NCBI RefSeq assembly: GCF_022023855.1
Contig: NZ_CP059452.1
Coordinates: 613,501 to 677,500, forward strand
Direction: 5' to 3'
DNA from: Azospirillum brasilense
GTDB taxonomy: Bacteria; Pseudomonadota; Alphaproteobacteria; Azospirillales; Azospirillaceae
DNA: 64,000 bases
Shown: positions 11,029 through 45,154 of the stretch, piece after piece
Numbering within the stretch: the stretch's first letter is position 1
Layout: each line of letters begins with the position of its first letter
Notes under the pieces: generated by a model
Told to the model about the DNA's origin: nothing
What the model saw: only the letters and a program-made list of their open reading frames with translations
Databases searched by the model: none
Made by a program: the position numbers and the translations under genes

Positions 11029-11190
11029 GGGATCGATCATAATTCACCCCCGGAGTTGGGTCGGATTTTGCTAAACTCTCGTTCGAAGCAACGACAATTG
11101 TCGCGTTGCCTCATCCGGAAGAGAGGCGGGCGGCGGCGATTGGCTTGATCCGCCGACCGAATGGCTTCGATGTCTTGTGGAGTTTCCATT

Positions 11191-11898: not shown

Positions 11899-11930
11899 GC
11901 GCCGGCCCTTCCGCCGATTCAGAAAGAAAA

Positions 11931-11965
11931 AAGGGCGGCGCCGTCATGGCGCCGCCCTTTCCGTT
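11931..11965. terminator. Bidirectional rho-independent terminator
   Basis: A perfect 12-bp stem (AAGGGCGGCGCC at 11931-11942, complement at 11948-11959) has a five-base loop. On the minus strand it is followed by a T-rich tract (TTTTTCTTTC), ideal for ending the SapC operon. On the plus strand it is followed only by TCCGTTT, a weaker stop for the exported-protein gene. Confidence 0.85.
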
Positions 11966-11984
11966 TCCGGCAGGCCGGACCGGA

Positions 11985-12710
11985 TCAGCCCCGGCGGGCA
12001 AGCCGGTCGACCAGACCCGACCAGCTGCTGACCGAGATCAGGTGGGCGTAGACCAGCCCCAGCCAGCCGCGGTCACGCCATTCCACCAGCGTCTCGGCGG
12101 GAAGCTGGTTGAAGGCCGCCTCGTCGATCACGTTGAAGCCGGCGAGGCTCAGCCGCTCGCCGTTGTTCAGGGTGATGTCGGCGCGCTTCTCCGACATCAG
12201 GCCGGCGGCCGTCACCGCCTCGACGAACTGCGTGGTGTAGGCGCTCTGGGCCTGCACTTCCTTGACGAACTCCAGGGCGTTGTTGGTCAGGGCGGACGGC
12301 TGCCCGTCGACGAAGAAGGGGTTGTCGCGGCCCGGAACGACAGCGTCCGCCGCCTCGTCGATGCACAGGGTGAGCTGGGACTTATCCTCGCTCTCCAGGA
12401 AAATGAACGGGTAGCGGCGGACATAGGCGGGAATATAGGCCCCCTCCTCCCACGCACCGTTCCCATCGACGAACAGGTTCTCGCCCGAGCGCAGCCCGAG
12501 CAGCGCCACCGGCTGGACCACTGGGCCTTCCGAGAACAGGATCGGGAACTGCTTGCAGGCCGCGGCGAACTCCGCCGCCATCAGCGGCACCGAGTTGGTG
12601 GCGGCCGCGAAGGCGAAGTTCGGCTCGGTGCGCAGCGACAGATCCGCGTCACGGGCGGCCACCAGCGGGCGGGGGTTCTTGTAGAACAGGGGCAGGGTCG
12701 GTTCGGTCAT
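11985..12710 (-). CDS. SapC family protein at the end of the TPS operon
   Basis: The 241-residue soluble protein matches the SapC family, named from a gene linked to S-layer export in Campylobacter. Typical features are the N-terminal FYKNPRPL with HRDLRL replaced here by ARDADLSL, the FAFAAATNSVPLMAAEF core, the FPILFS and PVALLGLRSGENLFVD strands, AYIPAYVRRYPFIF, and CIDEAADAV. No signal peptide is seen. Its biochemical role is unknown; in other proteobacteria it is often found beside TonB receptors or surface proteins. It starts 46 bases after the stop of the giant TpsA gene on the same strand and ends at a strong terminator, so it is most likely cotranscribed with the two-partner-secretion genes. 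Confidence 0.85.
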   Translation of the reverse strand: MTEPTLPLFYKNPRPLVAARDADLSLRTEPNFAFAAATNSVPLMAAEFAAACKQFPILFSEGPVVQPVALLGLRSGENLFVDGNGAWEEGAYIPAYVRRYPFIFLESEDKSQLTLCIDEAADAVVPGRDNPFFVDGQPSALTNNALEFVKEVQAQSAYTTQFVEAVTAAGLMSEKRADITLNNGERLSLAGFNVIDEAAFNQLPAETLVEWRDRGWLGLVYAHLISVSSWSGLVDRLARRG

Positions 12711-12756
12711 CGTTCGCTATCCAAAGGGTAAAAGTCTGCCGGGGGAAAGGCGCGCC

Positions 12757-24700: not shown

Positions 24701-27700
24701 GCGCCCGAAGCCGCCCCGGTGGAGATCAGCGCCACCGAGCCGGTGGAGCTGGTGCCGGCGTCGATGGTGCCGGCCACGATGCCGCGATCCACGCTGTAGC
24801 GCAGGTCCATGCTGCCGTTGCTCGGCGTGGACAGGGCCAGCGTCTGGACGCCGCTGGCTTCCGTCACCGTGAAGCTGCGATTGGAGCCGAGGGCGTTGAA
24901 CTGGTAGGTCCCCGTGCCGGTGGACGTCTTGTGCGTGACGGTGACGTCCAGCGCGGTCAGCGCGGTGTTGTTGTTGTTGATGTAGAGGTCGCCGTTGCTC
25001 ACCAGGGTCAGCGACGAGGCGGAGGTCTTCACCGCCCGCGTGTCGGTGCCGATGGAACCGCCGTTGGTGCCGGAGCCGTTGGCCGACAGGGTGACGGAGG
25101 ACGCCGCGATGGCCCCGCCGCCCGACATGGTGATCGTCGAGTTCTCCCCGCCGCCTGCGGTGGTCAGGCTGACCGAACCGCCGCCGGCGACGATCTCGGA
25201 AACCACGATATGCTTCTTGCCGGTGAAGCTGAAGTTGCTGTTGCCCGCACCCGTGATGTCGATCGAATGCGCCGTGCCGCTGTCGGCCAGCGAGTAGATC
25301 TGGGACCCGGTGCTGCCGATGGAGAAGGTGCTCTTGGTCGCGGAGGCCGTGGTGGCGTTCGTGCTGGTGATCGCCAGGCTGTTGAAGGCGCGCCCGTTGT
25401 TGTCGACGTAGATGTCGCGCCCCGATGTCACCGACAGGTTGCCGGTGTCGAGGCTGATGGCCCCGTAGAGGGTCGAATCACCGATGGAGGAGGAGGTTCC
25501 CGCCTCAAGCGACACCTTGCCGGCGGTGATCTTGCTGCCGTTGCCGGTGTTGGTGACGCCATTGGATGAGACGATGGCGACGCTTCCGCCCGTTCCAACG
25601 TTTACGGTGCCGACCTTGACCGCGCGCGATGAATTGAAGGCGAAGTTCAGCGCCGTGCTGCTGGTGACGGTCTGGATCGTGGACTGCGACGAGCTGTCCG
25701 ACAGGGTGAAGACCTGCCCATTGACCGTGGTGATCCCGATGGTGCCGCCGGAGTAGGAGCCGCGCGTCAGGGTGAGGTCGGTCAGCGCCATCGTGCCGGC
25801 GATGCCGATGGACCCACCCGCGGTGATCGACAGGTTCGCCGTTGCCAAATCCAGCGCGTTCACGCTGCCGACGCCGCCGCTGGCGTTCAGGATCACCTTG
25901 CCCGCGGAAATCAGGGTGGTGGTGTCGGCGTCGCCCTGGATGCTGCCGTTGCTGACCTTCAACTCGACGGTGCCGTTGGTGGCGTTGACCGTCCCGACGG
26001 TCAGGGTGCCACTGGTTTGTGCGGCGCTGATGTCGCCACCCGCCGTCAGGCTGTCCAGCTTGACCGTGCTGCCGCTCAGGCCGAGCCACATGGAGCCGCC
26101 CGCGTTGGCAACCACGGTTCCGCCCTGCACGACGAGGGCGTTGGACGCGGAGCCGATGTCCTTCCCAGCGGTCAGGGTCACCGTTCCGGTGGAGCTGGCG
26201 CGCAAGCCGGCGCTGTTCGGGTTCAGGATCGACCCGTGGGTCGCCTTCACCGTGATGTCGCTGCTGGCGCTGGACGAGAAACTGGAGCCGAAGGCGATGT
26301 CGCCCCACGTCGCCGTTACCACAATGGGGTTGTTGGCGGCGCTGAAGAAGCTGCCGCCCAGCGTGACGAGATTCTTCTGGTTGTTGACGCCCGTCGAGGT
26401 CGGCAGGGTGATGTAGATGCCGCCGTCTGACGCCCTGGCGTTGAGGACCGGGGTGACGATGTCCAGATATTCGGTGCCCGAGCCGCTGCCGATCGCCTTG
26501 CTGGCCTTCAGGTTGACCGAACCGGCCAGCACCACCGTGGTCTTCGACCCGTCGTCCAGGATGGAGCCGTTCGTCGTCTCGGCGTTGAAGATGCTGTAGG
26601 TTTCGCTGGGCGAGGGCGTCCCGTTGTCGGGAAGGACGCCGTTCTTGTAGGTCAGATCGACCCGGCCCAGCCGGATGTCGCGGTCGCCCTTGAAGGAGAA
26701 TATCTGGCCGGTGGTGTCGACCAGCGTGCGCAGCAGGTAGCCGTTGGTGGCGTCGTCGGTCAGGTCGAAGGCGAAGTTCGGCGCGGTGATCGAGTAGCTG
26801 TTCACCACCGTCGTGTCCGCATGCGTGCTGGTGACGCTCAGCGTCGCCATGTCGGACAGGTTGGTGACGTGCAGGTTGCCGCCGGTGGTCAGCGTCAGCT
26901 TCGTGGCGTTGAGCGCCAGCGGAGCGGAGGCGTCGCCCAGGCTGCCCGCCGCGGCGCTCAGCGTCACGGTGTCGGCGTTGATCCGCGTGTTCAGGCTGCC
27001 GTCGTCGCGGATGCTGCCGGTGGTGGAAGTCAGCGTGACCGTGCCGCCCGTTCCCACCGTGGCCAGATCGCCGACGATCAGGTCGATGTCGCTGTTGAAG
27101 TTGAGGGTGGAGAGCTTCGGGCTGCCGATCGCTTCCAGAATGGTCGCGGTGCCGTTGTCGCCGACCACAAAGTTGAAGTATTCGGAGGTGAGTTCCAGCG
27201 CGTTGGCGGCCCCACCGACATGGCGGTTGGTGATCGACAGGCTGGTCAGGATCACGCCGCTGTTGTCGAGATACAGATCCCCGACGTTGCTCAGCGTCAG
27301 CGACCCCGTGGAGGTGCGCAGATGGGTTCCGGAGCTCCCGATGGCGCCGCCCGTGCTCAGGCTGATGGCGTTGGCGGACAGCCGGTTGTTGGCGTCCTTG
27401 CCCAGGATCGCTCCGCCGGTCGCCGTCACGGAGATCGAGCCGGTGGTCGTCTTGATCGTCCCCAGCGTGGCGGCGCCGCCGTTCACGGTGAGCGAGATCG
27501 ACGAGCCGGTGGAGGTGATGTTGTCCACGGTCACGGCGCCGGTCTGGGAGACCGTGACGTTGCCCGCGTTGTTGGTGACCGTCAGCCGCTTCGCCGCGGT
27601 GTTCACCGTCACGGTGGAGGTGCTGCCTCCGGCGGCGAGCGTGACGTTGTCGCCGGTGATCGTGCCGGACAGGCCGGAGATGCTGCCGTTGGCGGTCGTC

Positions 27701-30684: not shown

Positions 30685-32439
30685 TCAGTATTGCGCAGTG
30701 ATGTTGAAGAAGACCCGCATGTCCTTGTCGCCCTCGGTCGCGACGCGGCGGGTCAGCGGCTTGTCGATCTCAAGCGTCGCGAAAAGCCGTTCCACGAGGC
30801 TGGCGCGCACACCGCCGCCCACGGAGACCAGCGAATTCCGGCTGTTCTGCTCCAGGCTGGAGCGGTTCCACACCTCGCCGCCGTCGACGAAGCCATAGAT
30901 CTGGACGGCTTGCGCGAAAGCGTTCTCCGGGACCACCGGCGTGTAGCGCAGCTCCAGCGACCCGGCCCAGCCGCTGTCGCCGGAGATCTCGCCCTCGTCG
31001 AAGGCGCGTCCGTAGCTCGGGCCGCCCAGCGCGATCTGCTCGCTGGCCAGCAGCGGCGTGCCCGCGGCCTGCATGGTGGCCGTCGCGAAAATGCTGAAGT
31101 TGGCCGGGAGTTGCTGCACGCGGGTGATGTCGGCGGTGAGTTTGGTGAAGTCGCTGCGCCCGCGCTCGCGCGATGCGTAGGCCGAGCCAAGCTTCGTCGC
31201 GTCGAGGATGTCCAGACCCTGGTGCACGAGGCCGCGCACCGCGGTGATGCCGTCCCAACCGTCGGTCCGGTCGTAGCTGAAACCGCCGCGCAGGATGCGC
31301 AGGCGGTCGCGGTTGAAACGGTCGCCGGAAATGTCGGTGTTCACGTCGCGGTATTCGAACTCGCCGACGGCGCGGAGGTTCTCCAGGCGCGAGCGGATCA
31401 CCGGATAGCTGAGCGTGCCCACACCCGCGGCCACCCAGCTTTCCACGTCCAGCGGGTCCAGCGTCAGTCCGGGCCGCGACTTGGAATAGGAGCCGGTGGC
31501 CGAGAAGGTCAGCCCGTCGCCGGTCACCAGCGCCTGGTAGCCGGCGCCGACCGACCAAGCCCGCGACGCCGGAGAGGACACGCGCCCGCTGAGGTTCACC
31601 GTGTCGGCGTTCGGCCCGAAGGAGTTCAGCGCCGCCGTCGCGGTCGTCTGGGCGGTGCCGAGATAGGGCGTGTTGCGGTTGCTGAACGACACCAGGGCGT
31701 CCACCGCCTTGCGGTCCGTCTTCACCACCACCACCGAGGCGCCGAGCGTGTCCGGCGACGGCTCCAGGCTGGCGCGCACGCTCAGGCCGGCGAGGTCGTT
31801 CGCCAGGAGAAGACGGCGCTCGACCTCGGCGACGTTGATCGGCTTGACGCCGCGGAGCGGCTCCACCAGCCGCTTGACCGCAGCCAGCGCCGGGCCGATG
31901 TCGTCGGGATAAGTGATGTCGGACACGAAGCCCTCGACCACTTGGAGGCGGAAGGTGCCGTCCTCGATCGTCTGGGCGGGAACGATGACCCGGCTGGTGA
32001 TGAAGCCGTCGTTGCGGTAGCGGAACTCGATGTCATTGGCGATCTTGAACAGGTCCGCCACCGACACCTCGCGGCCCAGCATATCTTGGTAAGCGGTCTT
32101 GAGGCTGTCCTGGCTGTAGGCGGTGGCGCCTTCGATGGAGACACTCCGCAACGTAAGACGGTAATTCTCGGCCCCCGCCGGTGCCTCCGCCGCGGGCGCC
32201 TTCGGCACCGTCACCGCGCCGCCCGGCACCGAGGGCAGCGGCATCACCGGACGCGGCGCCTCCGGACGCGGTTCCGCACCGGAGGGGAGCTGGGCCGGCA
32301 GCTGTTGCGCGAGCACGGGCGCTGTCGCACCCGCAAGAATAGCACTTGCCGCCAAGAAAGCCCACCAAGACGCTTTTCTTTTACCCACATCTTCGTTAGG
32401 GATGAAGATGAAGGAGGCGGCTTTGGTGGACGAGTTCAT
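30685..32439 (-). CDS. TpsB outer-membrane transporter (ShlB/FhaC/HecB family)
   Basis: The 584-residue protein carries a signal-like hydrophobic stretch (WWAFLAASAILAGATAPVLA) after a 25-residue N-region, then a Pro/Ala-rich linker. Two POTRA-type domains follow at about residues 95-250: LRSVSIEGATAYSQDSLKTAYQDMLG and NDIEFRYRNDGFITSRVIVPAQTIEDGTFRLQVVEG, each within the family pattern. The rest is a 16-strand beta-barrel. GGPSYGRAF corresponds to the conserved loop-6 motif that projects into the pore, and the chain ends in the aromatic VFFNITAQY expected for BAM-dependent insertion. It exports the TpsA protein encoded immediately downstream. It is the first gene of a tpsB-tpsA-sapC unit; its single ATG leaves no start ambiguity. 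Confidence 0.93.
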   Translation of the reverse strand: MNSSTKAASFIFIPNEDVGKRKASWWAFLAASAILAGATAPVLAQQLPAQLPSGAEPRPEAPRPVMPLPSVPGGAVTVPKAPAAEAPAGAENYRLTLRSVSIEGATAYSQDSLKTAYQDMLGREVSVADLFKIANDIEFRYRNDGFITSRVIVPAQTIEDGTFRLQVVEGFVSDITYPDDIGPALAAVKRLVEPLRGVKPINVAEVERRLLLANDLAGLSVRASLEPSPDTLGASVVVVKTDRKAVDALVSFSNRNTPYLGTAQTTATAALNSFGPNADTVNLSGRVSSPASRAWSVGAGYQALVTGDGLTFSATGSYSKSRPGLTLDPLDVESWVAAGVGTLSYPVIRSRLENLRAVGEFEYRDVNTDISGDRFNRDRLRILRGGFSYDRTDGWDGITAVRGLVHQGLDILDATKLGSAYASRERGRSDFTKLTADITRVQQLPANFSIFATATMQAAGTPLLASEQIALGGPSYGRAFDEGEISGDSGWAGSLELRYTPVVPENAFAQAVQIYGFVDGGEVWNRSSLEQNSRNSLVSVGGGVRASLVERLFATLEIDKPLTRRVATEGDKDMRVFFNITAQY

Positions 32440-34534: not shown

Positions 34535-35362
34535 ATGCAACAAAGAGCGCAACCTTTGGGGGATACCCCCACCGGAACAGCGTTGGATCGGCGGCGGGAA
34601 CCGAAACGCCCCTGGCCCTCCCTGTCCATGGCCGGATCGCCGCGGCTTCTCTCCCACACCGGGGAGGATCTCCACGAATTGGACGATTCCGGCCTTTTGG
34701 AACGCATCGCGACCGGGGACCAGACCGCCTTCTGGGTCTTCTGGTGCCGCCATTACACCGACCTGTTCTGGACATATCAAAGGTTGTGCAAAGGAAACCG
34801 ACAGGAAATCCACGACTGCCTGAGCGGGCTGTGCCTCAGCCTGTCGGATGTCCTGCCCCTCTACGCGCGCTCCATCCTCAACACGCGCACTTGGTTGCGG
34901 CGCACCGCCATCAACCATTTCATCGACCGGCACCGCGCCCACCAGCGCCATCCCGTCCTGGTCGGCTCCCTCGTCGAGATCGCCTCCATCGCCGACGGGT
35001 CCAGCGGGCGGGACGCCATGGACCCGGAACGCACCAACGCCGACCGTGCCCTGCTCGTCAAGGTCCTGGAGTCGCTCGACGGCATCCGGGACGAGCGGAT
35101 GCGCCAAGCCGCCCGCATGCGCTTCATTGAGGAACAGCCCTACGCGGACATCGCGGCGGAGCTGTCCATCTCCGAAGAGCTGGCGCGCAAGTGGATCCAG
35201 CAGATCCGCAGCTATCTGCGCAGCGCCGTTCCCGATCACCGCGACCTGCTGGCGAAACCGCCGCCCGACACCCCGCAGGCGCGGCGCGCCACCAAGCACG
35301 GGGTGCTGACCAGAACACGCCCGCCCAAGGCCCCTCCCAAGGTGATGAAACCGGCGCTTTGA
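34535..35362 (+). CDS. Sigma-70 family (ECF-like) RNA polymerase sigma factor
   Basis: The 275-residue protein has a disordered basic N-terminus, then a region-2-like helical block (DSGLLERIATGDQTAFWVFWCRHY... LNTRTWLRRTAINHFIDRHRAHQRH) at about 50-145. After a linker, a region-4-like helix-turn-helix follows at about 170-230 (LESLDGIRDERMRQAARMRFIEEQPYADIAAELSISEELARKWIQQI). This two-block layout is that of short sigma factors, although region 2 is divergent and the tail of about 45 Pro/Lys-rich residues is unusual. The ATG at 34535 has AAGGGA six bases upstream, inside a hairpin; a TTG at 34508 would lie inside that hairpin. It heads the rightward gene set, 74 bases before the patatin gene. 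No anti-sigma gene is adjacent. Confidence 0.7.
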   Translation: MQQRAQPLGDTPTGTALDRRREPKRPWPSLSMAGSPRLLSHTGEDLHELDDSGLLERIATGDQTAFWVFWCRHYTDLFWTYQRLCKGNRQEIHDCLSGLCLSLSDVLPLYARSILNTRTWLRRTAINHFIDRHRAHQRHPVLVGSLVEIASIADGSSGRDAMDPERTNADRALLVKVLESLDGIRDERMRQAARMRFIEEQPYADIAAELSISEELARKWIQQIRSYLRSAVPDHRDLLAKPPPDTPQARRATKHGVLTRTRPPKAPPKVMKPAL

Positions 35363-35436
35363 CCAGCGCCGCACACCCGAGCACGACCCGTCCCATTCCG
35401 CCGTCCTCATCAGGACGCCAACGACCGGAGCCATTC

Positions 35437-36501
35437 ATGCCCGACCAGACCATGCCCGCCCCCGCCGTCCAACCCGCCAACCGGAAGGGCGCCAAGCCGA
35501 TCAACCTCGCGCTCCAGGGGGGTGGCGCCCACGGTTCCTTCACCTGGGGGGTGATCGACCGCATCCTGGAGGACGGGCGCCTGACCATCGACGGCATCGT
35601 CGGGACCAGCGCCGGCGCCATGAACTGCGCCGTCACCGCCTATGGCCTGACCATCGGCGGTCCTGAGGGCGCGCGGAGCAAGCTGCGCGAATTCTGGCGC
35701 CGCATCTCCGACGAGGCAAAGAAGGGGCCGCTCCAGCCGACCCCGTTCGACAAGATGTTCAGCAAGGGGAACATGGACTTCTCCCCGCTCTGGCAGATGT
35801 TCGACGCGCTGTCGCGCATGATGTCGCCGTACGAGTTGAACCCGATGAACATGAACCCGCTGCGCGACGTGCTGTCGGACGTGGTGGATTTCAAACGGCT
35901 GCGCAAGGCGCCGGCCTGCAAGACCTTCATCGCGGCGACCGACGTCTGCGCCGGCCGGCTGAAGGTGTTCGGTCCGAAGGACATCTCGGTGGACGCGGTC
36001 CTCGCCTCGGCCTGCCTGCCCTTTCTGTTCCAGGCGGTGCAGGTCGGCAACGCCTTCTACTGGGACGGCGGCTATTCCGGCAACCCGCCGCTGTTCCCGC
36101 TGATCGACCAGTGCGACAGCCGCGACATCCTGATCGTCCAGATCAACCCGGTCCGCGTGCCGGTGCCGCCGCGCACCGCCCGCGAGATCATGGACCGCGT
36201 CAACACGCTCAGCTTCAACTCCAGCATGATGCGCGAGCTGCGTGTCGTCGACTTCGTCTCCAAGCTGATCGACTCCGGCGAACTCAGCCCGGAGAAGCAC
36301 AAGAAGATGCACATCCACACCGTCGACGCCGAAGAGGTCGTGGAGAAGCTGGGCGTCACCAGCAAGCTGAACGCCGACTGGGACTTTCTGATGTACATGT
36401 TCGAAACGGGCCGCCATAAGGCCGATGAGTTCCTGGATCAGCACTTCGACAAGATCGGCAGGGAATCCTCGACCGACATCAGCGCGAAGTTCCTTGCATG
36501 A
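35437..36501 (+). CDS. Patatin-like phospholipase
   Basis: The 354-residue protein shows the patatin fold's key elements. These are the oxyanion-hole loop LALQGGGAHG (residues 25-34), the nucleophile elbow GTSAG with Ser58, and the catalytic Asp in DGG at residue 210, giving a Ser-Asp dyad. It is close to the RssA/YchK-type bacterial group. The expected reaction is hydrolysis of acyl esters from phospholipids or related lipids. There is no signal peptide, so it acts on the cytoplasmic face or cytosolic substrates. GGAG seven bases before the ATG fixes the start. Its TGA overlaps the ATG of the racemase-like gene (ATGA), which ties the two together translationally. Confidence 0.88.
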   Translation: MPDQTMPAPAVQPANRKGAKPINLALQGGGAHGSFTWGVIDRILEDGRLTIDGIVGTSAGAMNCAVTAYGLTIGGPEGARSKLREFWRRISDEAKKGPLQPTPFDKMFSKGNMDFSPLWQMFDALSRMMSPYELNPMNMNPLRDVLSDVVDFKRLRKAPACKTFIAATDVCAGRLKVFGPKDISVDAVLASACLPFLFQAVQVGNAFYWDGGYSGNPPLFPLIDQCDSRDILIVQINPVRVPVPPRTAREIMDRVNTLSFNSSMMRELRVVDFVSKLIDSGELSPEKHKKMHIHTVDAEEVVEKLGVTSKLNADWDFLMYMFETGRHKADEFLDQHFDKIGRESSTDISAKFLA

Positions 36502-37679
36502 CGGGAACGCGGACGGGCCGGCGGGGCAGCACCACCGCCTGGGCGGACATCGATCTGCACGGCCTCGGCCGGAATCTGGAACGGTTGCGCCGCGGCCTTC
36601 CTCCCGGCCAAGCCGTCTTCGGCGTGGTGAAGGCGGACGCCTACGGCCACGGCGCCGGACCGGTCGGGCGAGCGCTCCAGCGGTTCGGGATCGACGGGCT
36701 GGTGGTGGCCGACATGGGCGAGGGCATCACCCTGCGGCGGGCCGGGGTCACGGCCCCTATCCTCGTCATCGACCCGCCGCTGCAAAGCCAGCTTCGGTTG
36801 CCCGCCCTGCACCGGCTGGGCGCCACCGTTACCAGCGCGGCGGAGGCGCGGGCGCTCGCCACCGCCGCCAACCGCGCCGGCCGGACGGTCGACGTGCATG
36901 TCCGGGTGAACATCGGCTTCGCCGGCTTCGGCGCGCCACGGACGGACCTGCCCGATGTGCTGACTGCGGTCGCCGCAGCGCCGGCTCTGCGGCTGGAGGG
37001 ACTCTACACCCACCTGTCCGGCGCCTACGGCCCCTATGAGGATGGCGGCGTGGCGGAGTTGGAGCGGTTCGGCGAGGCGATCGACACGGCACGGTCCACC
37101 GGCCTGCTTCCGCCGCTGATCCACGCGCTCAGCAGCCCGGCTCTCGACCGACCCCTCCTAACCGACGCCGCGGCGCGCATCGGCTGTACCGCGGTGCGTT
37201 GCGGCGCCGCTCTGTTCGGCATCCGCATGGTGGGTGGAGAGGGATCGGCTTCCCTCGCTCCGGTGATGAGCGTGAAGGCCCGCGTCACCCGTGTGACGGC
37301 GCTGGAGCCGGGAGACGTCGCCGATTACGCCGCCGCCAGCGCGGCGCCCCGGCGCACGCGGGTGGCGGTCGTGCCCTTCGGCTTCTCCGACGGTCACCAC
37401 CTGCACCGGCTGGCCGGCGGGGTCCTGTTGATCCGCGGATGCCCGGCGCCGGTCCTGGGCCGCCCCTTCATGAGCAGCCTGCTGGCCGACCTTACGGACG
37501 TCCCCGGCGTCCAGCCGGGCGACGAGGCGGTCCTGATCGGGCGGCAGGGCGATCACCGGATCACCGTGGAGGACATCGCGGCACGGTCCGGGCTGCGCCC
37601 CAGCGCAATCCCGCTTCTCGGGCCGCGGGTCGTCCGTCGCTACCGGTCGAGCGCCGCAAGGGAGGACCAAACGGAATGA
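36498..37679 (+). CDS. Alanine-racemase-family PLP enzyme, divergent
   Basis: The 393-residue protein has the fold-type III PLP barrel and C-terminal beta domain of alanine racemase. WADIDLHGLGRNLERL comes near the start, the PLP lysine sits in VVKADAYGHG (Lys45), then VHVRVNIGFAGFG and LYTHLSGAYG. A Tyr in VADYAAAS (about residue 277) can be aligned with the second catalytic base. The substrate-site motif usually GYxDGxxR reads GFSDGHHLHR, a departure that may mean another amino acid or an altered rate. It begins in an ATGA overlap with the patatin gene and ends in an ATGA overlap with the binding-protein gene. Whether it is the cell's main racemase is unlikely given this context, but that is inference. 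Confidence 0.8.
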   Translation: MTGTRTGRRGSTTAWADIDLHGLGRNLERLRRGLPPGQAVFGVVKADAYGHGAGPVGRALQRFGIDGLVVADMGEGITLRRAGVTAPILVIDPPLQSQLRLPALHRLGATVTSAAEARALATAANRAGRTVDVHVRVNIGFAGFGAPRTDLPDVLTAVAAAPALRLEGLYTHLSGAYGPYEDGGVAELERFGEAIDTARSTGLLPPLIHALSSPALDRPLLTDAAARIGCTAVRCGAALFGIRMVGGEGSASLAPVMSVKARVTRVTALEPGDVADYAAASAAPRRTRVAVVPFGFSDGHHLHRLAGGVLLIRGCPAPVLGRPFMSSLLADLTDVPGVQPGDEAVLIGRQGDHRITVEDIAARSGLRPSAIPLLGPRVVRRYRSSAAREDQTE

Positions 37680-38878
37680 GCCCCGCCGCCCCGCCGTTCG
37701 ACTATCGAGCCCTTGCGGACAAAACCGGAGCCGCGGCGATCACCCGCCGCGGCTGGATGGCCGGCGCCGCTGCCGCCAGCCTCGGCGCCCTCTGCCCGTC
37801 GCCGGCGGTCCCGGCCGCCCCCCGCCCGCTCCCGTCGGTCCGGGACGTGCCGCGGCGCTGGCGTGTCGGCTACGCGGAATCCATGCCCTACGGCAATTAC
37901 GCCGCGACGCTCGCCGCCATCCTCGGCGAGTTGGAGCGGATGGGCTGGACCGGCGGCCTGAGCGGCATGCCCTACCGTCCGGGGCAGACCGACACCGCCA
38001 CCCTGTGGTCCTGGCTGGCCGCCCGTGCCGGCAGCCCGGTTCTCGACTTCGTCGCCGATGCCCACACCACCAACCTGACGCCCGACGGTGCCGCCACGCT
38101 GGTGAGACGTCTGCAGGATCCGGGCGACATCGACCTGATGATCGTCATGGGAACGGTCGCCGGCGTCGCCCTGGCGACCGACGCCCACCGGGTGCCGGTC
38201 CTCACCTTCTCCTGCACCAACCCGGTCGCCGCCGGGATCGTCGCGTCGGAGGCCGACACCGGGCGCGACCATGTGTGGGCGCATCTCGACCCGCGGCGGT
38301 TCCAGCGCCAGCTGGCCATTTTCCACAGGACCTTCCGGTTCCAGCGTCTGGGCATCGCCTACGACGACAGCCCGACGGGGCGGGCCATCGCCTCGCTGCC
38401 CGACATCGAGGCGTCGGCCGAGCGGCTCGGCTTCGCGCTGGTGCGGCGGCACGTCCGCGCGCCGATCGACCACCTCGACCAATACCGCTACGAGGTCGAT
38501 CTGACCGCTGCCTGGGACGGGCTGTCGCGCGACGCGGATGCCGTCTACATCACCTACGGGCGCTGGCCGCTGGACCGTTTCACCTCGCTGGCCCGGCCCT
38601 TTCTGAAACAGCGCATCCCGACCTTCTCGCAGCTCGGCCCCGAGGAGGTGGAGCGCGGCGCGCTGATGAGCATCGCCCGCGCCGACATGGCGGGCATCGG
38701 CCATTTCGGCGCCGCCACCCTCGCCCGCGTCATGGCCGGCGAGCCGCTGCGCCACCTGCCGCAGGTCTATTTCGACACGCCCTCCATCGCCTGGAATGCG
38801 GCGACCGCGGCGGCCATCGGCTACCGCATCCCCTTTCCGGCGCTGCTGGCGGCGGATTCACTGCACGGAGTGCTCTAG
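37676..38878 (+). CDS. Tat-exported ABC-type substrate-binding protein (ABC_sub_bind family)
   Basis: The 400-residue protein opens with a twin-arginine signal: ITRRGWMAGAAAASLGALC, arginines near 24-25, with probable cleavage in the following PAVPAAP stretch. The mature part has the two-lobe pattern of the family related to TrpX/YtrC-neighbour binding proteins: RRWRVGYAESMPYGNYAATLAAILGELERMGW, IDLMIVMGTVAGVAL, VPVLTFSCTNPVAAGIV, FRFQRLGIAYDDSPTGR, and DADAVYITYGRWPL. No ABC permease or ATPase gene is near, so it is an orphan, more likely a sensor or chaperone partner of the neighbouring MFS fusion than a classical uptake component. The start overlaps the racemase stop (ATGA) and GGAGG lies upstream. 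Confidence 0.8.
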   Translation: MSPAAPPFDYRALADKTGAAAITRRGWMAGAAAASLGALCPSPAVPAAPRPLPSVRDVPRRWRVGYAESMPYGNYAATLAAILGELERMGWTGGLSGMPYRPGQTDTATLWSWLAARAGSPVLDFVADAHTTNLTPDGAATLVRRLQDPGDIDLMIVMGTVAGVALATDAHRVPVLTFSCTNPVAAGIVASEADTGRDHVWAHLDPRRFQRQLAIFHRTFRFQRLGIAYDDSPTGRAIASLPDIEASAERLGFALVRRHVRAPIDHLDQYRYEVDLTAAWDGLSRDADAVYITYGRWPLDRFTSLARPFLKQRIPTFSQLGPEEVERGALMSIARADMAGIGHFGAATLARVMAGEPLRHLPQVYFDTPSIAWNAATAAAIGYRIPFPALLAADSLHGVL

Positions 38879-38880
38879 CC

Positions 38881-41388
38881 ATGGCCTCACCCGGCGCCCC
38901 GTCCGGCCGCTCCGGCCCCCTCCGCGCCTTTCTGGTGTCCGTGGTTCTGGTGGGAGTGACTCTGGCCTTCAGCCTGAGCATCAATCTCGGCTCCTTCCGC
39001 CAGAACCACGCGGGCACGCTGATGGCCGCCTTTGCGGTGGTCGGCGGCAAGACCGTGGAGAACGTCCAGGACGCGCTGGGCTACGGCAAGCCGTTGGACG
39101 ACTTCTACGGGCTGGAGGCGATCCTCGACCAGCTCGCCGCCAATCTGCCCTGGGCGCGGGGGATAGGGGTGGCGGTGACGGACGGGCGCATCGTCGCCAC
39201 CGCCAGGGGACGGCCCGTAGAGCCGATGGCGGAGGCCACCCTGCGCGGCGCCCGCGCCGAGTTGGAGCGGCGGCCCCACTGGTTCCGGCACGACGCCGAC
39301 CGCGGGGCCTACTTCCTCTATCTGCCGATCCGCAATCCCGGCGAGGCCGAGCGGGACGGACGGACGGCGGACGCCCCCGCCGGTTTCCTGATCATCCAGT
39401 CCGACAGCGCCAGGGTCGACGACCGGGTGGAGGAATTCCGCGACAGCACCCTGCCGCAACTGCTGTGGACGGGGCTGGGGACGGTCGGCTTCCTCGGCCT
39501 GACGGGCCTTGCCATGGCCTTCGGTCTGCGCCGCGCGTCGGAGGGCCGCCGGGTCCGGCTGGAACGCCTGCGTCGGCTGCTGGCTCTCGGCGCGATGCTG
39601 GCCGCCCAGACCGCGGCGGCGGCGGAATGCTACACGCTGATTTCCACCGCCCATCTGGAGGCCGCCGAACAGGCGACCCAGATCGTCGCGCGGATGATCC
39701 GCAACGACGTCGAGTTGGTGGTCCGGCGCGGGCTGGACTATGGGGCGCTGGCCGGGGTGGACGGCTATTTCGAGCGCATCCGCGCCAGCATGCCCACCCT
39801 GCAATCCATCGAACTGGCCGTGCCCGGCGCAAGCCCGCCGGCGCACGATGGCCGTCACATGGTGACCGGCGTTCCCTTCCTGTCGGACATGCCGGACGTG
39901 ACGCTGCGCTGGCCGCTCGCCCAGGACCGCGGCGGCGAGTCGCGCGAGCTGGTGGCCGTGGTGGACGGCGACCGGGTTGCCGCCCAACTGACCGAGTTCG
40001 GGCTGGACATGGCGACCATCCTCGTCACCTCGCTGCTGTTCATGTTCGAGATGGATCGTGCGCTCGGCGGGCGGACGCGGATGGTCCATCGTTCGGGCGA
40101 CGGGCGCGCCGCGGCGGGTGAGACCGGCGATTTCGCCGGCTTCATCCGCTTTTCGGCCTTTCTGATGTATTTGGGCGCCTTTCTGCCGGTGTCCTTCGTC
40201 CCGCTGCTGATGACCAGCTTCGGTAGGGAGCCCTTTCCCTTTCTGTCACCGTCCCAGATCGCCGCGGCGCCGCTGACGGCGGAGATGCTGTGCGGGGTCG
40301 CCGCGGCGCTGGCCGCCGGACGGCTGACCGGGCGTCTCGGCTGGCGGGCGGTCTCACTGACCGGCTTCGCCGCTGCGGGGGCGGGAATGGCGCTGGCCGC
40401 CGTGGCGGTGATGACCGCCGACCCGATTCTGTTCATCCTGGCCCGCGGGCTGAGCGGGGCGGGCAGCATGGCCGGGCTCATCGCCGCGAACGCCCTGATC
40501 GGGCGGCTGCGCGGGGTTTCGGATGGTTCCGCTCTGCAACCCGGCCTGTTTGCCGGCATGTACGCCGGGGTGAATTGCGGGGCCGTTTCGGGCGCCCTGC
40601 TCTCCACCACCTACGGAGCGGTGACGGTGTTCGCCGCAGGCGCTCTGATCCCGTTGGCAGGGCTATTCTACACCGCTTTCGGCATTCCCCGCCTGCCCGG
40701 AACCGTCCCGCCGGACGCGCACTGCGCGCCCGCGGCCGTTCCCTCGCCCGGCAGCGCGACGGTCCACCCGCGGCGACGGCGTATCAAGGTGCCGCTGTTC
40801 CTGGCGCTGATCTCCCTGCCCACCGCGGTGGCGGCGATGTTCCTGCCCTTCTATCTGCCGCTGTTCATCGCGGATCTCGGCCTGTCGTCGGCGACGGTGG
40901 GCCGCGCCTACCTGCTGCACGGCCTGTGCGTCGTTCTGGCCGGGCCGCTGCTGACCCGGATGGCGGCGCGGCGCCTGCCGATTCCGGGGGTGACGCTGCT
41001 GTCGGCGGCGATGATCGCCGGGGCGCTGGCGCTGTTCGGTCTCCAGGCGTCGCTGTGGACGGCCTTCGCCACCGTGTTCGCGATCGGCTTGGCGGAGAGC
41101 TTCGGCCTGTCCGCCCAGATGCGCCATGTCGAGCTGCTGGCGGCGCGCGAGGCGCGGCGCCGCGATTCCGTGCTCGCCCTGCACGTCAACACCCGCAAGC
41201 TGGGACAGGCCGCCGGGCCGTTGCTGTTCGGCACGCTGGCCGCCGCCGTCCCGCTGGGCGCCGGCCCGGAGGGGGTGGGCGTGATCGGCGGGCTTCTGGC
41301 CGGCAGCCTGCTGCTCTTCGCCCTGCTGACGTGGCGGCGGACCGTCCCGCACCGCACGGCGCGCCAGCGGACGAAGGGCCGGCAATGA
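38881..41388 (+). CDS. MFS transporter fused to two N-terminal extracytoplasmic domains
   Basis: The 835-residue protein is a rare fusion. TM1 is at about 15-36, then an extracytoplasmic domain at 37-190. TM2 (193-216) and TM3 (232-255) follow, then a second extracytoplasmic domain at 256-372 and TM4 at 373-391. From about 420 a 12-helix major-facilitator module follows, with RLTGRLGWRAVSL after helix 2, LARGLSGAGSMAGLIAANALIGRLRG, a central Pro/His-rich loop with RRRRIK, and a second half from about 640. The two outer domains look like CHASE/Cache-type sensory modules (DGRIVATARGRPV; LVAVVDGDRV). The arrangement suggests ligand-gated or ligand-reporting transport, probably with the Tat-exported binding protein encoded two bases upstream. 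It ends in an ATGA overlap with the GNAT gene. Confidence 0.78.
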   Translation: MASPGAPSGRSGPLRAFLVSVVLVGVTLAFSLSINLGSFRQNHAGTLMAAFAVVGGKTVENVQDALGYGKPLDDFYGLEAILDQLAANLPWARGIGVAVTDGRIVATARGRPVEPMAEATLRGARAELERRPHWFRHDADRGAYFLYLPIRNPGEAERDGRTADAPAGFLIIQSDSARVDDRVEEFRDSTLPQLLWTGLGTVGFLGLTGLAMAFGLRRASEGRRVRLERLRRLLALGAMLAAQTAAAAECYTLISTAHLEAAEQATQIVARMIRNDVELVVRRGLDYGALAGVDGYFERIRASMPTLQSIELAVPGASPPAHDGRHMVTGVPFLSDMPDVTLRWPLAQDRGGESRELVAVVDGDRVAAQLTEFGLDMATILVTSLLFMFEMDRALGGRTRMVHRSGDGRAAAGETGDFAGFIRFSAFLMYLGAFLPVSFVPLLMTSFGREPFPFLSPSQIAAAPLTAEMLCGVAAALAAGRLTGRLGWRAVSLTGFAAAGAGMALAAVAVMTADPILFILARGLSGAGSMAGLIAANALIGRLRGVSDGSALQPGLFAGMYAGVNCGAVSGALLSTTYGAVTVFAAGALIPLAGLFYTAFGIPRLPGTVPPDAHCAPAAVPSPGSATVHPRRRRIKVPLFLALISLPTAVAAMFLPFYLPLFIADLGLSSATVGRAYLLHGLCVVLAGPLLTRMAARRLPIPGVTLLSAAMIAGALALFGLQASLWTAFATVFAIGLAESFGLSAQMRHVELLAAREARRRDSVLALHVNTRKLGQAAGPLLFGTLAAAVPLGAGPEGVGVIGGLLAGSLLLFALLTWRRTVPHRTARQRTKGRQ

Positions 41389-41912
41389 CCGGCCTGCGCT
41401 TCGCCCTGCTGGCGCCGGACGCGCTGGGCGCCGTCCTGGCGCTGCAGCGGGAGGCCTGCGGCCCGCTGATGCACCCGCTTGGCGAGGCTGAACTGTTAGA
41501 GATGCTGGCCGGGCCGCACAGGGGCCATGGAGCGGTGCTCGGCGCGCTGACCGACAGCGCGCTCGCCGCCTTCCTCGCCGTGCAGTTTCCCGGTCGGGCC
41601 GCCCACAATCTGGGCCGCGACTACGGCCTTCCCGACGGGGACCTCCACCGGGCGCTGCACTTCACCGGCATCCTCGTGCACCCGGACCGGCGCGGACAGG
41701 GTCTGCACCGGCGCCTGATCGAAACCGCCGCCCAAGGGGTGCTGCCGCCGGACCGGCACCGCTACTGGTTCGCCACCGTCCGGCCCGAGAACACTGCCAG
41801 CGTGCGCGGAATGCTGTCGGTCGGCATGCATGTCTTCGCGCGCAAGCCCAAGCACGACGGCCACGACCGCCTTCTCTTCGTCCGCGACCTGTCCGCCCCG
41901 GCCGGCGGCTGA
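41385..41912 (+). CDS. GNAT-family acetyltransferase
   Basis: The 175-residue protein shows the GNAT acetyl-CoA motif A: a strand FTGILVHPDRRGQGLHRRLIETA with the RRGQGL pyrophosphate loop at about residue 103. Upstream is the usual LGALTDSALAAFLAV strand pair, and motif B reads YWFATVRPENTASVRGMLSVGMHVF. It should transfer an acyl group from a CoA donor to an amine, perhaps a free amino acid or a protein N-terminus; the acceptor is unknown. Translation is coupled to the MFS fusion gene by ATGA. Next to a racemase-like enzyme, acylation of a D-amino acid is a reasonable but unproven idea. Confidence 0.8.
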   Translation: MTGLRFALLAPDALGAVLALQREACGPLMHPLGEAELLEMLAGPHRGHGAVLGALTDSALAAFLAVQFPGRAAHNLGRDYGLPDGDLHRALHFTGILVHPDRRGQGLHRRLIETAAQGVLPPDRHRYWFATVRPENTASVRGMLSVGMHVFARKPKHDGHDRLLFVRDLSAPAGG

Positions 41913-41956
41913 GGCTCCCCTTGTCACCGCTCCTTTGGCCCTCCGGAGACCGCCCG

Positions 41957-44098
41957 ATGTCCCAAACGCCGTACCGGATACGCCTGCGCGTGGGAATCGC
42001 GCTGGCCTTTCTGCTGACGACGGTGCCGCTGATCGCGGTGATGCTCAGCTACCTCTATCATGAGAACTCCCGCACCGCGCTGGAGGTGGCGTCCCAGTCG
42101 ATCGCGCGCACCACCCAGAGCGTCACCAACGACCTGAACGGGCTGGTCAGCCCGGTGGCCCGCGTCGCCGAGGCGATGGCCGGGTTCGGGCGGATCGACC
42201 GGAACGGGCTGCGCCGCATCGAATCGCTGCGCTACTTCTCCGACGCCCTGGCCACCCTGCCACAGCTCGCCTCGCTCTATGTCGGCTTCGCCGGCGACGG
42301 CGCCTTCTTCCAGATGGCCCGGCTGGCCCCCGACGGCGGGCGTTTCGGCCCCGCCACCCCGCCGCCGGGCAGCGCGCTCGCCCTGCGCATGCAGGATTCC
42401 AGTTCGGGCCGGTTCGCCGACTCCTATTTCTATCTGCGCTCCTGGGGGCAGGTCACCGGTGTGGAGCGGGTGGAGGCGACGGAGGACCCGCGCGCCGCCC
42501 CCTGGTACGTGGCAGCGCAAAAGGCCGGGTCGGCGGTGATGTCCGACGCCTTCGTCCTGTCGGCGACCGGGCGCCCGGTGGTCACCGTCTCCTACCGGAT
42601 GGCCACCGACGACGGGGTGCCCATCGGCACCATCGGGGCCGACGTCTCGCTGGACCGGCTGGCGGCCCGGCTGGACGCCCTGCGCATCGGACCGTCCGGG
42701 GCGGTGTTCGTGATCGACGGCAACGGGCGGGTGATCTGCCACAATCGGGCCGACCTGCTGGTCGGCGGCGGCGGCGCGGCGGCGGCGCTTCACACCACCG
42801 CATCCTTTCCCGACCCGGTGCTGGCCGAGGCGGTGGAGCGCCGCAACAGCGGGGCCGGCGACCGCTTCATCGCCCCGCTGGGGCCGCAGGGCCGCGACTA
42901 CATCGTCGAATTCGCGACCCTGGCCGACGGAATCGGCAGCGGATGGACCGTCGGCGTGGCGGTGGAGGTGGACGAGTTCGTCGGCTCGCTGCGCCGCGCC
43001 ACCTACCGCATCGTCGTGATCGGCGCCGGGCTGCTGGCGGTGTCGGTCCTGCTGCTGCTGTGGCTGTCGCACCGGCTGACCCGTCCGATGCAGGACATCG
43101 TGTCGGAGACCAAGCGCATCCGCCATTTCGACCTGACCGGCCGCTTCGCCGTCCGCACCCGCGTGCAGGAGGTGGCGGAGCTGGCCGGCGCCGTGGAGGC
43201 CATGAAGGGCGGGCTGCGCCGCTTCGGCGCCTATGTCCCCAAGTCGCTGGTGCGCGACATCATCGTGACCGGCGACGGCGGCGAGCTGGGCGGCGAGACG
43301 CGCCCCCTCAGCATCCTGTTCAGCGACATCGCCGGCTTCACCGCGACCAGCGAAGCCATGCCGCCGCAGCAGGTCCTGGACCGGCTGACCACCTATTTCG
43401 AACGGATGACCGCCTGCATCCACGGTCATGGCGGCACGGTGGACAAGTTCATCGGCGACGCCATCATGGCCTTCTGGAACGCCCCGCGCCCCGACCCGGA
43501 CCATGCGGAGCACGCCTGCCTCGCCGCTCTCGGCTGCCTGTCGGTCAACCGCGCCATCAACGACGCCTGCCTCGCCGCCGGCATGCCGCCGATGCCGACC
43601 CGGTTCGGCCTGCATCTGGGCGAGGTGGTGGTGGGCAACGTCGGTTCCTCCGACCGCATGCAGTACACGGCGCTGGGCTCCCACGTGAACCTCGCCTCGC
43701 GCATCGAGGGGCTGAACAAGGTCTACGGCACCAGCATCCTGGTCACCGGGGCGGTGGAGCACGCGGTGCGCGGGCGCTTCCTGTTCCGACCCGTCGATCT
43801 CGCCGTGCCCTCGGGCCTGTCGGCGCCGATCGAGCTGTTCGAGCTGGTCGGCGCGCTCGCCCCGCATTCGGCCTTCGCCCGCCCGCCGGAGACTCACGAC
43901 CTCTGCCACCAGTGGCACGTCGCCGTCTCGCTCTACCGCGGCCGGCGCTGGTCGGCAGCGCTGGACCTGCTGCGGCCGCTGGCCGACGAGCCGGAGGTGG
44001 CGGCGCTGGCCCGGCTCTACATCGCGCGCTGCGAGCGGCTGATCGCCGACCCGCCCGGCGACGGCTGGGACCCCGCCGAGCATTTCAAATCCAAGTAG
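41957..44098 (+). CDS. Membrane class III adenylate/guanylate cyclase with dCache and HAMP
   Basis: In the 713-residue protein, TM1 is at about 10-34, a large periplasmic double-Cache-type domain at 35-345 (APWYVAAQKAG, VTVSYRM, GTIGADVSLDRLAARL, GAVFVIDGNGRVICH), TM2 near 351-372, and HAMP at about 372-425. A class III cyclase domain begins near 445. Both metal-binding aspartates are present (FSDIAGFTATSE and FIGDAIMAFW), as is the substrate Lys in VDKFIGDA, and the transition-state pair appears in GSHVNLASRIEGL (Asn and Arg). It should make cAMP (Lys at the purine site) in response to a small periplasmic ligand. GGAG before the ATG sets the start; a 44-base gap follows the GNAT gene. A C-terminal helical tail of about 80 residues ends in DPAEHFKSK. 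Confidence 0.9.
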   Translation: MSQTPYRIRLRVGIALAFLLTTVPLIAVMLSYLYHENSRTALEVASQSIARTTQSVTNDLNGLVSPVARVAEAMAGFGRIDRNGLRRIESLRYFSDALATLPQLASLYVGFAGDGAFFQMARLAPDGGRFGPATPPPGSALALRMQDSSSGRFADSYFYLRSWGQVTGVERVEATEDPRAAPWYVAAQKAGSAVMSDAFVLSATGRPVVTVSYRMATDDGVPIGTIGADVSLDRLAARLDALRIGPSGAVFVIDGNGRVICHNRADLLVGGGGAAAALHTTASFPDPVLAEAVERRNSGAGDRFIAPLGPQGRDYIVEFATLADGIGSGWTVGVAVEVDEFVGSLRRATYRIVVIGAGLLAVSVLLLLWLSHRLTRPMQDIVSETKRIRHFDLTGRFAVRTRVQEVAELAGAVEAMKGGLRRFGAYVPKSLVRDIIVTGDGGELGGETRPLSILFSDIAGFTATSEAMPPQQVLDRLTTYFERMTACIHGHGGTVDKFIGDAIMAFWNAPRPDPDHAEHACLAALGCLSVNRAINDACLAAGMPPMPTRFGLHLGEVVVGNVGSSDRMQYTALGSHVNLASRIEGLNKVYGTSILVTGAVEHAVRGRFLFRPVDLAVPSGLSAPIELFELVGALAPHSAFARPPETHDLCHQWHVAVSLYRGRRWSAALDLLRPLADEPEVAALARLYIARCERLIADPPGDGWDPAEHFKSK

Positions 44099-44113
44099 CC
44101 GGAAGAGGACGCG

Positions 44114-45154
44114 ATGAAAAGCAGATGGACGGCGCGGCTGATGGCCGCCTGCACGGTACTGGCGCTGGCGCTCGCCGCCGCCGGGGTGTCCGCCGAGACG
44201 GTCATCAAGCTGGCCCACCCCAACCGCAACGACGCCTTCGACAACACCGCCGGAGCCATGGCGATCGTCTTCAAGAACCATGTCGAGGTGGCGACCGAGA
44301 AGCGCGTGCGGGTGGAGATCTTTCCCGAAGGCCAGATGGGCCGCGATGGCGACGCGGTGAAGCTGGTCCGCCAGGGGACCATCCAGTCGGCCATCTCCTC
44401 GGTCGGTGGGGTGGCGCCGCTCTACCCGATGCTGGCGGTCATCGACCTGCCCTTCGCCTATTCCTCGGTCGCCAACGCCTATGACGTCTTCGACGGCCCC
44501 TTCGGCCACCGGCTGGCCGAGGAGATCCGGCGCAAGGCGGGCCTCGCCGTGCTGGGCTTCGGCGATCCGGGCGGGCTGTTCACCATCACCAACTCCAAGC
44601 GCCCGATCCGCCTGCCGGAGGACATGAAGGGGCTGAAGATCCGCACCATGGATCTGGAGACGCACCGCACCATGATCGGCAGCCTGGGCGGCACGCCGGT
44701 CAACGTCGCCTGGTCGGACCTCTACAACGCGCTGGGCACCGGCGCGGTGGACGGCCAGATGAATCCGGTGCCGATCGTCCGCTTCGCCCGCTTCGACGAG
44801 GTCCAGCGCCACCTGACGCTGAGCAACCACCTGTTCCTCCCCTATGTCTGGGTGATGAACGCCAAGTTCCTGGACGAGCTCGCCCCCAGCGACCGCGCGG
44901 CCGTGATGAACGGCGCCCGTCTGGGCGTCGTCGCCAGCCGTGGCCTCAGCCGCCTGATCGAATCCTCGGACCGCGGCCTGCCGCCGCTGGCGCAGCGCAT
45001 GGAGGTCCACACGCTGACCCCGCGCGAGGCGGAGGCGTTCCGCAAGGTGACCCAGCCCGCGGTGCGGCAGGCCATTGAGCGGCGGTTCGGTGCCGAGGGG
45101 GTCGAGATGCTGGCCGCCTTCGAACGGGCGATCCGCGAGGAGCGGACGCCGTAA
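44114..45154 (+). CDS. Orphan TRAP-type substrate-binding protein (DctP family)
   Basis: The 346-residue protein has a Sec signal peptide (MAACTVLALALAAAGVSA, cleavage after residue 27). The DctP fold follows: TVIKLAHPNRNDAFDNTAGAMAIVFKNHVE, VEIFPEGQMGRDGDAVKLVRQGTI, LPFAYSSVANAYDVFDGPFG, and an arginine in DMKGLKIRTMDLETHRTMIGSLGGTPVNVAWSDLYNALGTGAVDGQ that normally clamps an organic-acid carboxylate. Membrane subunits DctQ and DctM are not next to it, so uptake through a local TRAP system is not supported. Sitting 15 bases after the dCache cyclase, it is likely to present its ligand to that cyclase's periplasmic domain. GGAAGAGGA lies upstream of the ATG. Confidence 0.85.
   Translation: MKSRWTARLMAACTVLALALAAAGVSAETVIKLAHPNRNDAFDNTAGAMAIVFKNHVEVATEKRVRVEIFPEGQMGRDGDAVKLVRQGTIQSAISSVGGVAPLYPMLAVIDLPFAYSSVANAYDVFDGPFGHRLAEEIRRKAGLAVLGFGDPGGLFTITNSKRPIRLPEDMKGLKIRTMDLETHRTMIGSLGGTPVNVAWSDLYNALGTGAVDGQMNPVPIVRFARFDEVQRHLTLSNHLFLPYVWVMNAKFLDELAPSDRAAVMNGARLGVVASRGLSRLIESSDRGLPPLAQRMEVHTLTPREAEAFRKVTQPAVRQAIERRFGAEGVEMLAAFERAIREERTP

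What the first reader, a model, noticed from the sequence alone, without database searches (positions are those of the whole stretch)
34535..45154. Uncharacterised gene set linking a racemase-like enzyme, two orphan binding proteins, an MFS fusion and a cAMP-type cyclase
Eight rightward genes are packed with ATGA overlaps at 36498, 37676 and 41385 and short gaps elsewhere: sigma-like factor, patatin lipase, alanine-racemase-like enzyme, Tat-exported binding protein, MFS with two outer domains, GNAT, dCache-HAMP class III cyclase, TRAP-type binding protein. The outer domains, binding proteins and cyclase all face the periplasm, while the racemase, acetyltransferase and lipase are cytosolic. A plausible reading is a pathway that makes, modifies, exports and senses a small amino-acid-like ligand and reports it through cAMP and a sigma factor. 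I know of no described pathway with this composition.
Basis: partly seen in the sequence, partly recalled or inferred. Interest (0 to 1): 0.8.

Follow-up and report, generated by a model that had tools for sequence, protein, structure and literature searches.

The report
Sensor-transporter gene block with binding protein
A soil bacterium (Azospirillum) carries a conserved block of genes in which a membrane transporter with sensor domains travels with its own binding protein, an amino-acid-type enzyme and a cAMP-making sensor; related blocks recur in other bacteria with other enzymes and outputs, which suggests a little-described way to handle and sense a small molecule whose identity is still unknown.

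Summary
In detail: eight same-strand genes at the stated coordinates, three joined by ATGA overlaps. The set is not chance: of 15 Azospirillum genomes (own included) with the cyclase orthologue, 14 have the patatin gene 6.4-6.6 kb away on the same strand; the fifteenth is split over contigs. The MFS protein is a fusion of two outer sensor domains (one clearly Cache, one probably) with an MFS, and its family is tied to an orphan PF04392 binding protein: 43 of 43 loci with >=10 kb of DNA (not all independent), against 0 of 20 ordinary MFS genes; two database proteins fuse both. Around this pair, enzymes alternate (Alr-like, GCS2, D-Ala-D-Ala-ligase-like, ATP-grasp; often GNAT), and outputs seem to (class III cyclase, Cache-SpoIIE/HATPase/STAS). 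The own genome holds a second locus with ATP-grasp instead of Alr. 'Make or modify, transport and sense an amino-acid-like compound' is plausible, but ligand, direction and cAMP coupling are inferred. The sigma factor link is weak, and the cyclase Cache domain lacks the amino-acid motif. The open-licence papers searched gave no description.

The parts
34535..35362 (+). ECF-like sigma factor; peripheral, seen only in the A. brasilense group and L010
   Evidence: TIGR02937 57.1 bits over cut-off 42.9; Pfam region 4 below cut-off; no match in L011, L013
35437..36501 (+). patatin-like phospholipase
   Evidence: PF01734 E 1.5e-24; at fixed distance from the cyclase in 14 of 15 genomes, the 15th split over contigs
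36498..37679 (+). alanine-racemase-like PLP enzyme; catalytic Lys and Tyr kept, Arg136 position lost
   Evidence: TIGR00492 183.1 bits over cut-off 168; PDB alignments; relatives aligned
37676..38878 (+). orphan ABC_sub_bind (PF04392) binding protein with a twin-arginine-type leader (RRGW, by eye)
   Evidence: PF04392 35 bits over cut-off 25.9; nearest solved relatives 3lkv, 3lft at E about 0.005
38881..41388 (+). fusion: TM, outer domain 1 (residues about 38-188), TM, TM, outer domain 2 (about 250-375), TM, MFS (about 420-820)
   Evidence: PF07690; hydropathy; models and fold searches; domain profiles against two-gene relatives
41385..41912 (+). GNAT acetyltransferase
   Evidence: PF00583 23.5 bits over cut-off 20.7; kept in L011 and L013
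41957..44098 (+). dCache-HAMP-class III nucleotide cyclase; catalytic residues kept, adenylate type
   Evidence: PF02743, PF00672, PF00211; best PDB matches are adenylate cyclases; orthologue >=60% identical in 15 of 45 genus genomes
44114..45154 (+). orphan DctP-type (TRAP) binding protein
   Evidence: PF03480 E 6.7e-62; nearest DctM found about 68.6 kb away; 15 bp after the cyclase in 8 of 9 relatives, 8 bp in L011 (approximate)

Best explanation
The block is a receptor-coupled transport and signalling unit. Its constant heart is a pair: an orphan periplasmic ABC_sub_bind protein and an MFS transporter that carries Cache-type outer sensor domains (in other loci a separate sensor subunit plus a sensor-HAMP-MFS protein). 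The binding protein most likely captures a small molecule in the periplasm and presents it to the Cache domains, much as LuxP works with LuxQ, and so gates the MFS. Cytosolic enzymes encoded beside it (here an Alr-like PLP enzyme and a GNAT) make or modify the compound, probably derived from an amino acid; the MFS probably exports it. Here a dCache-HAMP adenylyl cyclase with its own DctP-type binding protein turns the periplasmic state into cAMP; relatives use a Cache-SpoIIE/HATPase/STAS partner switch. Shown: gene content, conservation, the binding-protein/sensor-MFS pairing, alternating enzymes, catalytic residues. Inferred: ligand class, export direction, contact between binding protein and Cache domains, cAMP response.
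For: Pairing: ABC_sub_bind within 2.5 kb of the MFS in 43 of 43 loci with >=10 kb of DNA (44 of 46 in all; the misses L120 and L128 are contig pieces of 5.0 and 3.5 kb), against 0 of 20 ordinary MFS genes of the same genomes, one of these controls being only 4.0 kb. With L010 added, 37 of 44 such loci were not used to build the ABC_sub_bind model and 36 of 44 have both genes on one strand. Database proteins P0203 and P0205 hold MFS and PF04392 in one chain. Own-genome second locus: TM-sensor-TM, sensor-HAMP-MFS, ABC_sub_bind, GNAT, ATP-grasp; two of the three PF04392 genes found in this genome lie in such loci. Within 6 kb, of 43: Alr, GCS2, D-Ala-D-Ala-ligase-like or ATP-grasp_4 enzymes 26, GNAT 14, SpoIIE/HATPase/STAS 16, class III cyclase 4 (one of them A. 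soli, of the window's own lineage); controls 0 of 20 for each. Tree of the MFS domain: enzyme/context labels need 10 changes; Alr occurs in at least two places. Cyclase residues intact. Linkage in the genus.
Confidence: 0.5

Rival explanations
1. Nutrient uptake with sensing: the pair is an importer in which the MFS takes a compound delivered by the binding protein, and the Alr-like enzyme, ligases and GNAT convert the imported substrate.
For: Binding proteins usually serve uptake; a second binding protein (DctP) is part of the block; catabolic racemases exist (recalled).
Against: Neighbouring enzymes in relatives are often ATP-dependent ligase types (GCS2, ATP-grasp), biosynthetic by type; sources name some relatives 'efflux permease' or MdtG, though that is annotation only.
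Confidence: 0.25
2. Self-protection: the MFS expels and the GNAT acetylates a toxic compound, the Cache and binding-protein parts sense it, and the Alr/Ddl-like enzymes alter cell-wall precursors in the way VanT and Van ligases do.
For: The best NCBIfam score of the Alr-like enzyme is to the VanT catalytic subunit, below its cut-off (225 against 460); some relatives have D-Ala-D-Ala-ligase-like enzymes.
Against: Other relatives use GCS2 or ATP-grasp_4, not known for a cell-wall role (recalled); the VanT cut-off is not met; the genome has a separate canonical Alr.
Confidence: 0.12
3. Ordinary mosaic: only ABC_sub_bind + sensor-MFS is a functional unit; patatin, sigma, cyclase and DctP are neighbours kept together by operon inheritance in one clade with no shared pathway.
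For: Core and flanking genes differ in rate: pat, cyc, dctP 96-99% identical against 89-91% for alr, abcsb, mfs in L006; Arenibaculum (L013) has only the core four, and the Azospirillum loci L044-L047 show no pat, cyc or dctP.
Against: No cyclase orthologue (>=60%) was found away from the block in 45 genus genomes, except that in G017 contigs break between them; class III cyclases also lie beside two other lineages of the family (L096; L105 and L113).
Confidence: 0.25

Closest known systems
LuxP-LuxQ type receptor (binding protein plus Cache/PAS-like periplasmic sensor; mechanism recalled)
   Same: A periplasmic binding protein paired with a membrane protein bearing a Cache/PAS-like domain; LuxQ and LuxP-LuxQ structures are among the weaker fold hits.
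   Different: The membrane partner here is an MFS transporter, not a kinase; the binding protein is PF04392; contact not tested.
UhpC-type MFS sensors (recalled, no call)
   Same: An MFS protein used in sensing.
   Different: Here the sensing part is a Cache module fused to, or encoded beside, the MFS, with its own binding protein.
PF04392 ABC importers (TrpX type)
   Same: The binding protein family.
   Different: NF041285 TrpX cut-off not met (34.2 against 390); no ABC permease or ATPase among the eight genes; tied to an MFS instead.
Cache-domain receptors (Upadhyay 2016, PMC4822843; passages read)
   Same: Cache input domain; HAMP in the own-genome copy.
   Different: The passage read lists MCP, HK, c-di-GMP enzymes, phosphatases, cyclases, STK, TF and ion channels as outputs; the word 'transporter' occurs 0 times in that main text.
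vtsABCD in Vibrio-type T6SS clusters (PMC8861277; passages read)
   Same: Extra 'transporter proteins' inside a T6SS cluster, said to affect stress response and hcp expression in V. anguillarum; the sensor-MFS/binding-protein pair of L100, whose named MFS relatives are Vibrio, lies among T6SS genes.
   Different: Homology to vtsA-D not verified; no racemase, GNAT or cyclase seen in those loci.

Membership tests
Alanine racemase (Alr) | PLP-binding Lys39 and catalytic Tyr265 (G. stearothermophilus numbering and roles recalled) | tested here: met
   Both aligned to solved alanine racemases (1l6f/1bd0); kept in relatives
Alanine racemase (Alr) | Arg136 near the substrate carboxylate (role recalled) | tested here: not met
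   GMGRLG becomes GFAGFG; replaced in the window, L004, L010, L011, L013, L044-L047; kept in the own canonical Alr L110 and in L112, L126
Class III adenylyl cyclase | two metal Asp, Lys/Thr substrate pair, Asn/Arg pair (roles recalled) | tested here: met
   All present in the catalytic domain
dCache_1AA amino-acid sensor | Arg two before the WY pair, aromatic at +16, Asp at +18 (PctA R126, Y144; the Asp recalled) | tested here: not met
   Ala, Phe, Leu in the window and in L004-L010 and L012; L011 not scored, its WY site was not found. Motif residues from passages of PMC10104139.
ABC importer | ABC permease and ATPase beside the binding protein | tested here: not met
   None among the eight genes
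TRAP transporter | DctM membrane subunit encoded with DctP | tested here: not met
   Nearest DctM found about 68.6 kb away
Cache receptor | Cache fold in outer domain 1 of the MFS fusion | tested here: met
Cache receptor | Cache fold in outer domain 2 | tested here: inconclusive
LuxP-LuxQ-like receptor pair | physical contact of binding protein and sensor | not testable with these tools
   only adjacency and gene fusion
ECF sigma factor | sigma-70 ECF superfamily model | tested here: met
   TIGR02937 57.1 over 42.9; Pfam region 4 below cut-off; anti-sigma partner not tested

The most novel reading that the evidence does not exclude
A broadly distributed, so far undescribed class of transporter-receptors: an MFS pump gated by its own Cache(-HAMP) domains and a dedicated periplasmic binding protein, forming a closed loop that makes, exports and reads back an amino-acid-derived signal and passes it to swappable outputs (cAMP, SpoIIE partner switch, T6SS). 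It would be the first binding-protein-dependent MFS and a new output type for Cache receptors.
Probability: 0.3. Interest if true: 0.85.

Novelty: new variant of a known kind. Interest (0 to 1): 0.62.

Why it matters
Orphan binding proteins and 'MFS transporter' genes are usually annotated one at a time and left there. A fixed pairing between a PF04392 protein and a sensor-bearing MFS, seen in 20 family codes among the 43 loci of at least 10 kb and fused into one chain in two database proteins, gives both a testable partner. If the MFS is gated by the binding protein, this would be a new transport logic; if the compound is a signal, the block would be a self-contained communication system in a plant-associated genus.

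Tried and rejected
I first read the Phe in GFSDG as loss of the catalytic Tyr265 of Alr and noted it (note). Numbering the PDB alignment showed that Tyr265 is the Y of VSYGATY, which is kept; the claim was withdrawn (note). GGDEF/EAL/HK as a fixed output: not enriched (11 of 43 within 6 kb against 5 of 20 controls). dN/dS against L011 is 0.48-0.69 at large distance and was not used. Promoter scan: two sigma-70-like sites against 0.5 expected, one well upstream of the sigma gene and one inside the cyclase gene; of no use for the operon question. Outer domain 2: no Foldseek match under E 0.001.

Literature: five searches returned no paper. The others returned listings (3 papers, 2 in 47, 15 of 37, 5 in 60, 15 of 67), of which I saw titles and abstract starts and, for PMC8861277, PMC11790442, PMC4822843, PMC10104139, PMC8714846 and PMC12797937, passages only. 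No whole paper was read. Two papers recalled as relevant were not held.

Limits of the counts. The 46 loci are not independent (for example L044-L047 and L089-L091 are near-copies) and include the own genome's second locus L102. Left out of the count: the window, L004-L009, L010, L012 and L050 (a second copy of the A. soli locus L011); L010 was added. In some searches only the two best candidates per genome were scored. Most weaker rows (about 25-30% identity over the MFS part only) were not followed, save G000:C2 and G036. The models were built partly from loci scored later; two intended L102 sequences came out empty there through a coordinate slip, so L102 did not train the ABC_sub_bind or ATP-grasp models, but did train the GNAT model. 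Controls were taken at about every seventh row of the printed part, one at a contig start being passed over; control L145 is only 4.0 kb.
Full report
What is there. The window lies in an Azospirillum genome of 7.39 Mb in 8 contigs (the genus judged from the named relatives). Distances are sig-pat 74 bp, pat-alr -4, alr-abcsb -4, abcsb-mfs 2, mfs-gnat -4, gnat-cyc 44, cyc-dctP 15. A tRNA-like stretch precedes the sigma gene (by eye; no tRNA search was run).

Is it more than chance. The eight-gene order is found in L004-L009, relatives of the A. brasilense group, and in L010, named Roseomonas genomospecies 6; its place agrees with that of genome G011, which one search lists in the window's genus. 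L012 is a contig end that holds only part of mfs, then gnat, cyc and dctP. The junctions are nearly invariant. Among 45 genomes of the genus, own included, 15 have a cyclase orthologue of 60% identity or more (a sixteenth, G006, has only 35-36% matches). In 14 of the 15 the patatin gene starts 6.4-6.6 kb away on the same contig and strand; in the fifteenth (G017) the two are on different contigs. A. soli (L011) has the block from patatin to DctP at 43-69% identity; Arenibaculum (L013), another genus, has only alr, ABC_sub_bind, MFS and GNAT. dN/dS against L006 and L010 is 0.07-0.47 for all eight genes.

The wider family. An alignment of eight such proteins was used to search 385 genomes of the class and 398 of the phylum; 32 and 11 have a match at E 1e-30 or better, the own genome counted in both. 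I fetched the surroundings of all of these, plus those that match over the whole length outside the A. brasilense group and L010. With home-made profiles, ABC_sub_bind lies within 2.5 kb of the MFS in 44 of 46 loci, and in 43 of 43 with at least 10 kb of DNA; the two misses are contig pieces of 5.0 and 3.5 kb. Twenty ordinary MFS genes of the same genomes gave 0 of 20. Two database proteins carry the MFS and PF04392 in one chain, though their outer domains match my profiles only weakly. Among the 43: Alr, GCS2, D-Ala-D-Ala-ligase-like or ATP-grasp_4 enzymes in 26, GNAT in 14, SpoIIE/HATPase/STAS in 16, class III cyclase in 4, each 0 of 20 in the controls; GGDEF/EAL/HK in 11, against 5 of 20. 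On a tree of the MFS domain the enzyme and context labels need 10 changes (shuffled mean 29.1), and Alr occurs in at least two separate places. L126 combines Alr and GNAT with SpoIIE, STAS and HATPase, bridging the types. In L100, whose named MFS relatives are Vibrio, the pair sits among T6SS genes: TssK-type, FHA-type and ClpB/ClpV-type proteins by Pfam; L129 has the same neighbours by similarity. For L099 and L101 (the latter's MFS is identical to one of Marinomonas posidonica) the T6SS reading is by eye only.

How it may work. The Alr-like enzyme keeps the catalytic Lys and Tyr, so it may still be a racemase or epimerase, but the Arg136 position is lost in all the block-linked copies of the window's own lineage that were aligned, while two Alr copies in other lineages of the family (L112, L126) and the genome's second, canonical Alr keep it. 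The cyclase keeps the catalytic residues and should make cAMP; its dCache lacks the amino-acid motif. DctP is far from any DctM gene found. The simplest reading is a binding protein that presents a ligand to Cache domains on the transporter, with a cyclase that reports a related periplasmic state. The ligand, the direction of transport and the contact between the parts are inference.

Against known systems. The pairing resembles LuxP-LuxQ in logic, and MFS proteins used as sensors are known (UhpC, recalled). I found no description of a Cache-bearing MFS with its own binding protein in the searches run (open-licence PMC papers only, listings and passages seen). A Cache survey (PMC4822843, passages) lists no transporter output in the passages read. 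The discussion passage on vtsABCD in PMC8861277 is a lead to a genetically studied relative, not verified.

Verdict. Observation confirmed; interpretation partly supported, with the sigma factor the weakest link. The discovery is less the eight-gene set than the fixed pair at its centre.

Noticed in passing
window 12757-30663 (-) and 30685-32439 (-): A 5968-aa ORF with a TPS secretion domain beside a ShlB/FhaC-type transporter with POTRA: a two-partner secretion pair with a giant exoprotein.
   Followed up: partly
L102 (own genome G000:C2:333500-352500), about 7801-13750: Second sensor-MFS/ABC_sub_bind locus in the same genome, with GNAT and ATP-grasp instead of Alr.
   Followed up: yes
L044 4454-7873 (similar ORFs in L045, L047 by eye): Beside the alr-abcsb-mfs core of other Azospirillum: a protein with periplasmic-binding, MscS-channel and cNMP-binding domains, a possible cyclic-nucleotide-gated channel.
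   Followed up: no
L048 2313-5234 (-): A LanM-like protein (DUF4135 plus LANC_like) next to the HATPase/ABC_sub_bind/SpoIIE genes.
   Followed up: no
L044 13530-14783 (-): ORF with a sub-threshold match to a neurotransmitter-gated channel ligand domain (19.3 bits, cut-off 26).
   Followed up: no
L100 and L129: Sensor-MFS plus ABC_sub_bind among T6SS genes, followed by an SBP_bac_3 protein (Pfam for L100, similarity for L129).
   Followed up: partly
L115 6949-7917: A ketopantoate-hydroxymethyltransferase-like protein lies between ABC_sub_bind and SpoIIE, where other loci have a ligase or racemase.
   Followed up: no
L011 16208-18376: In A. soli a further dCache protein of 722 aa with no recognised output domain follows DctP.
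   Followed up: no
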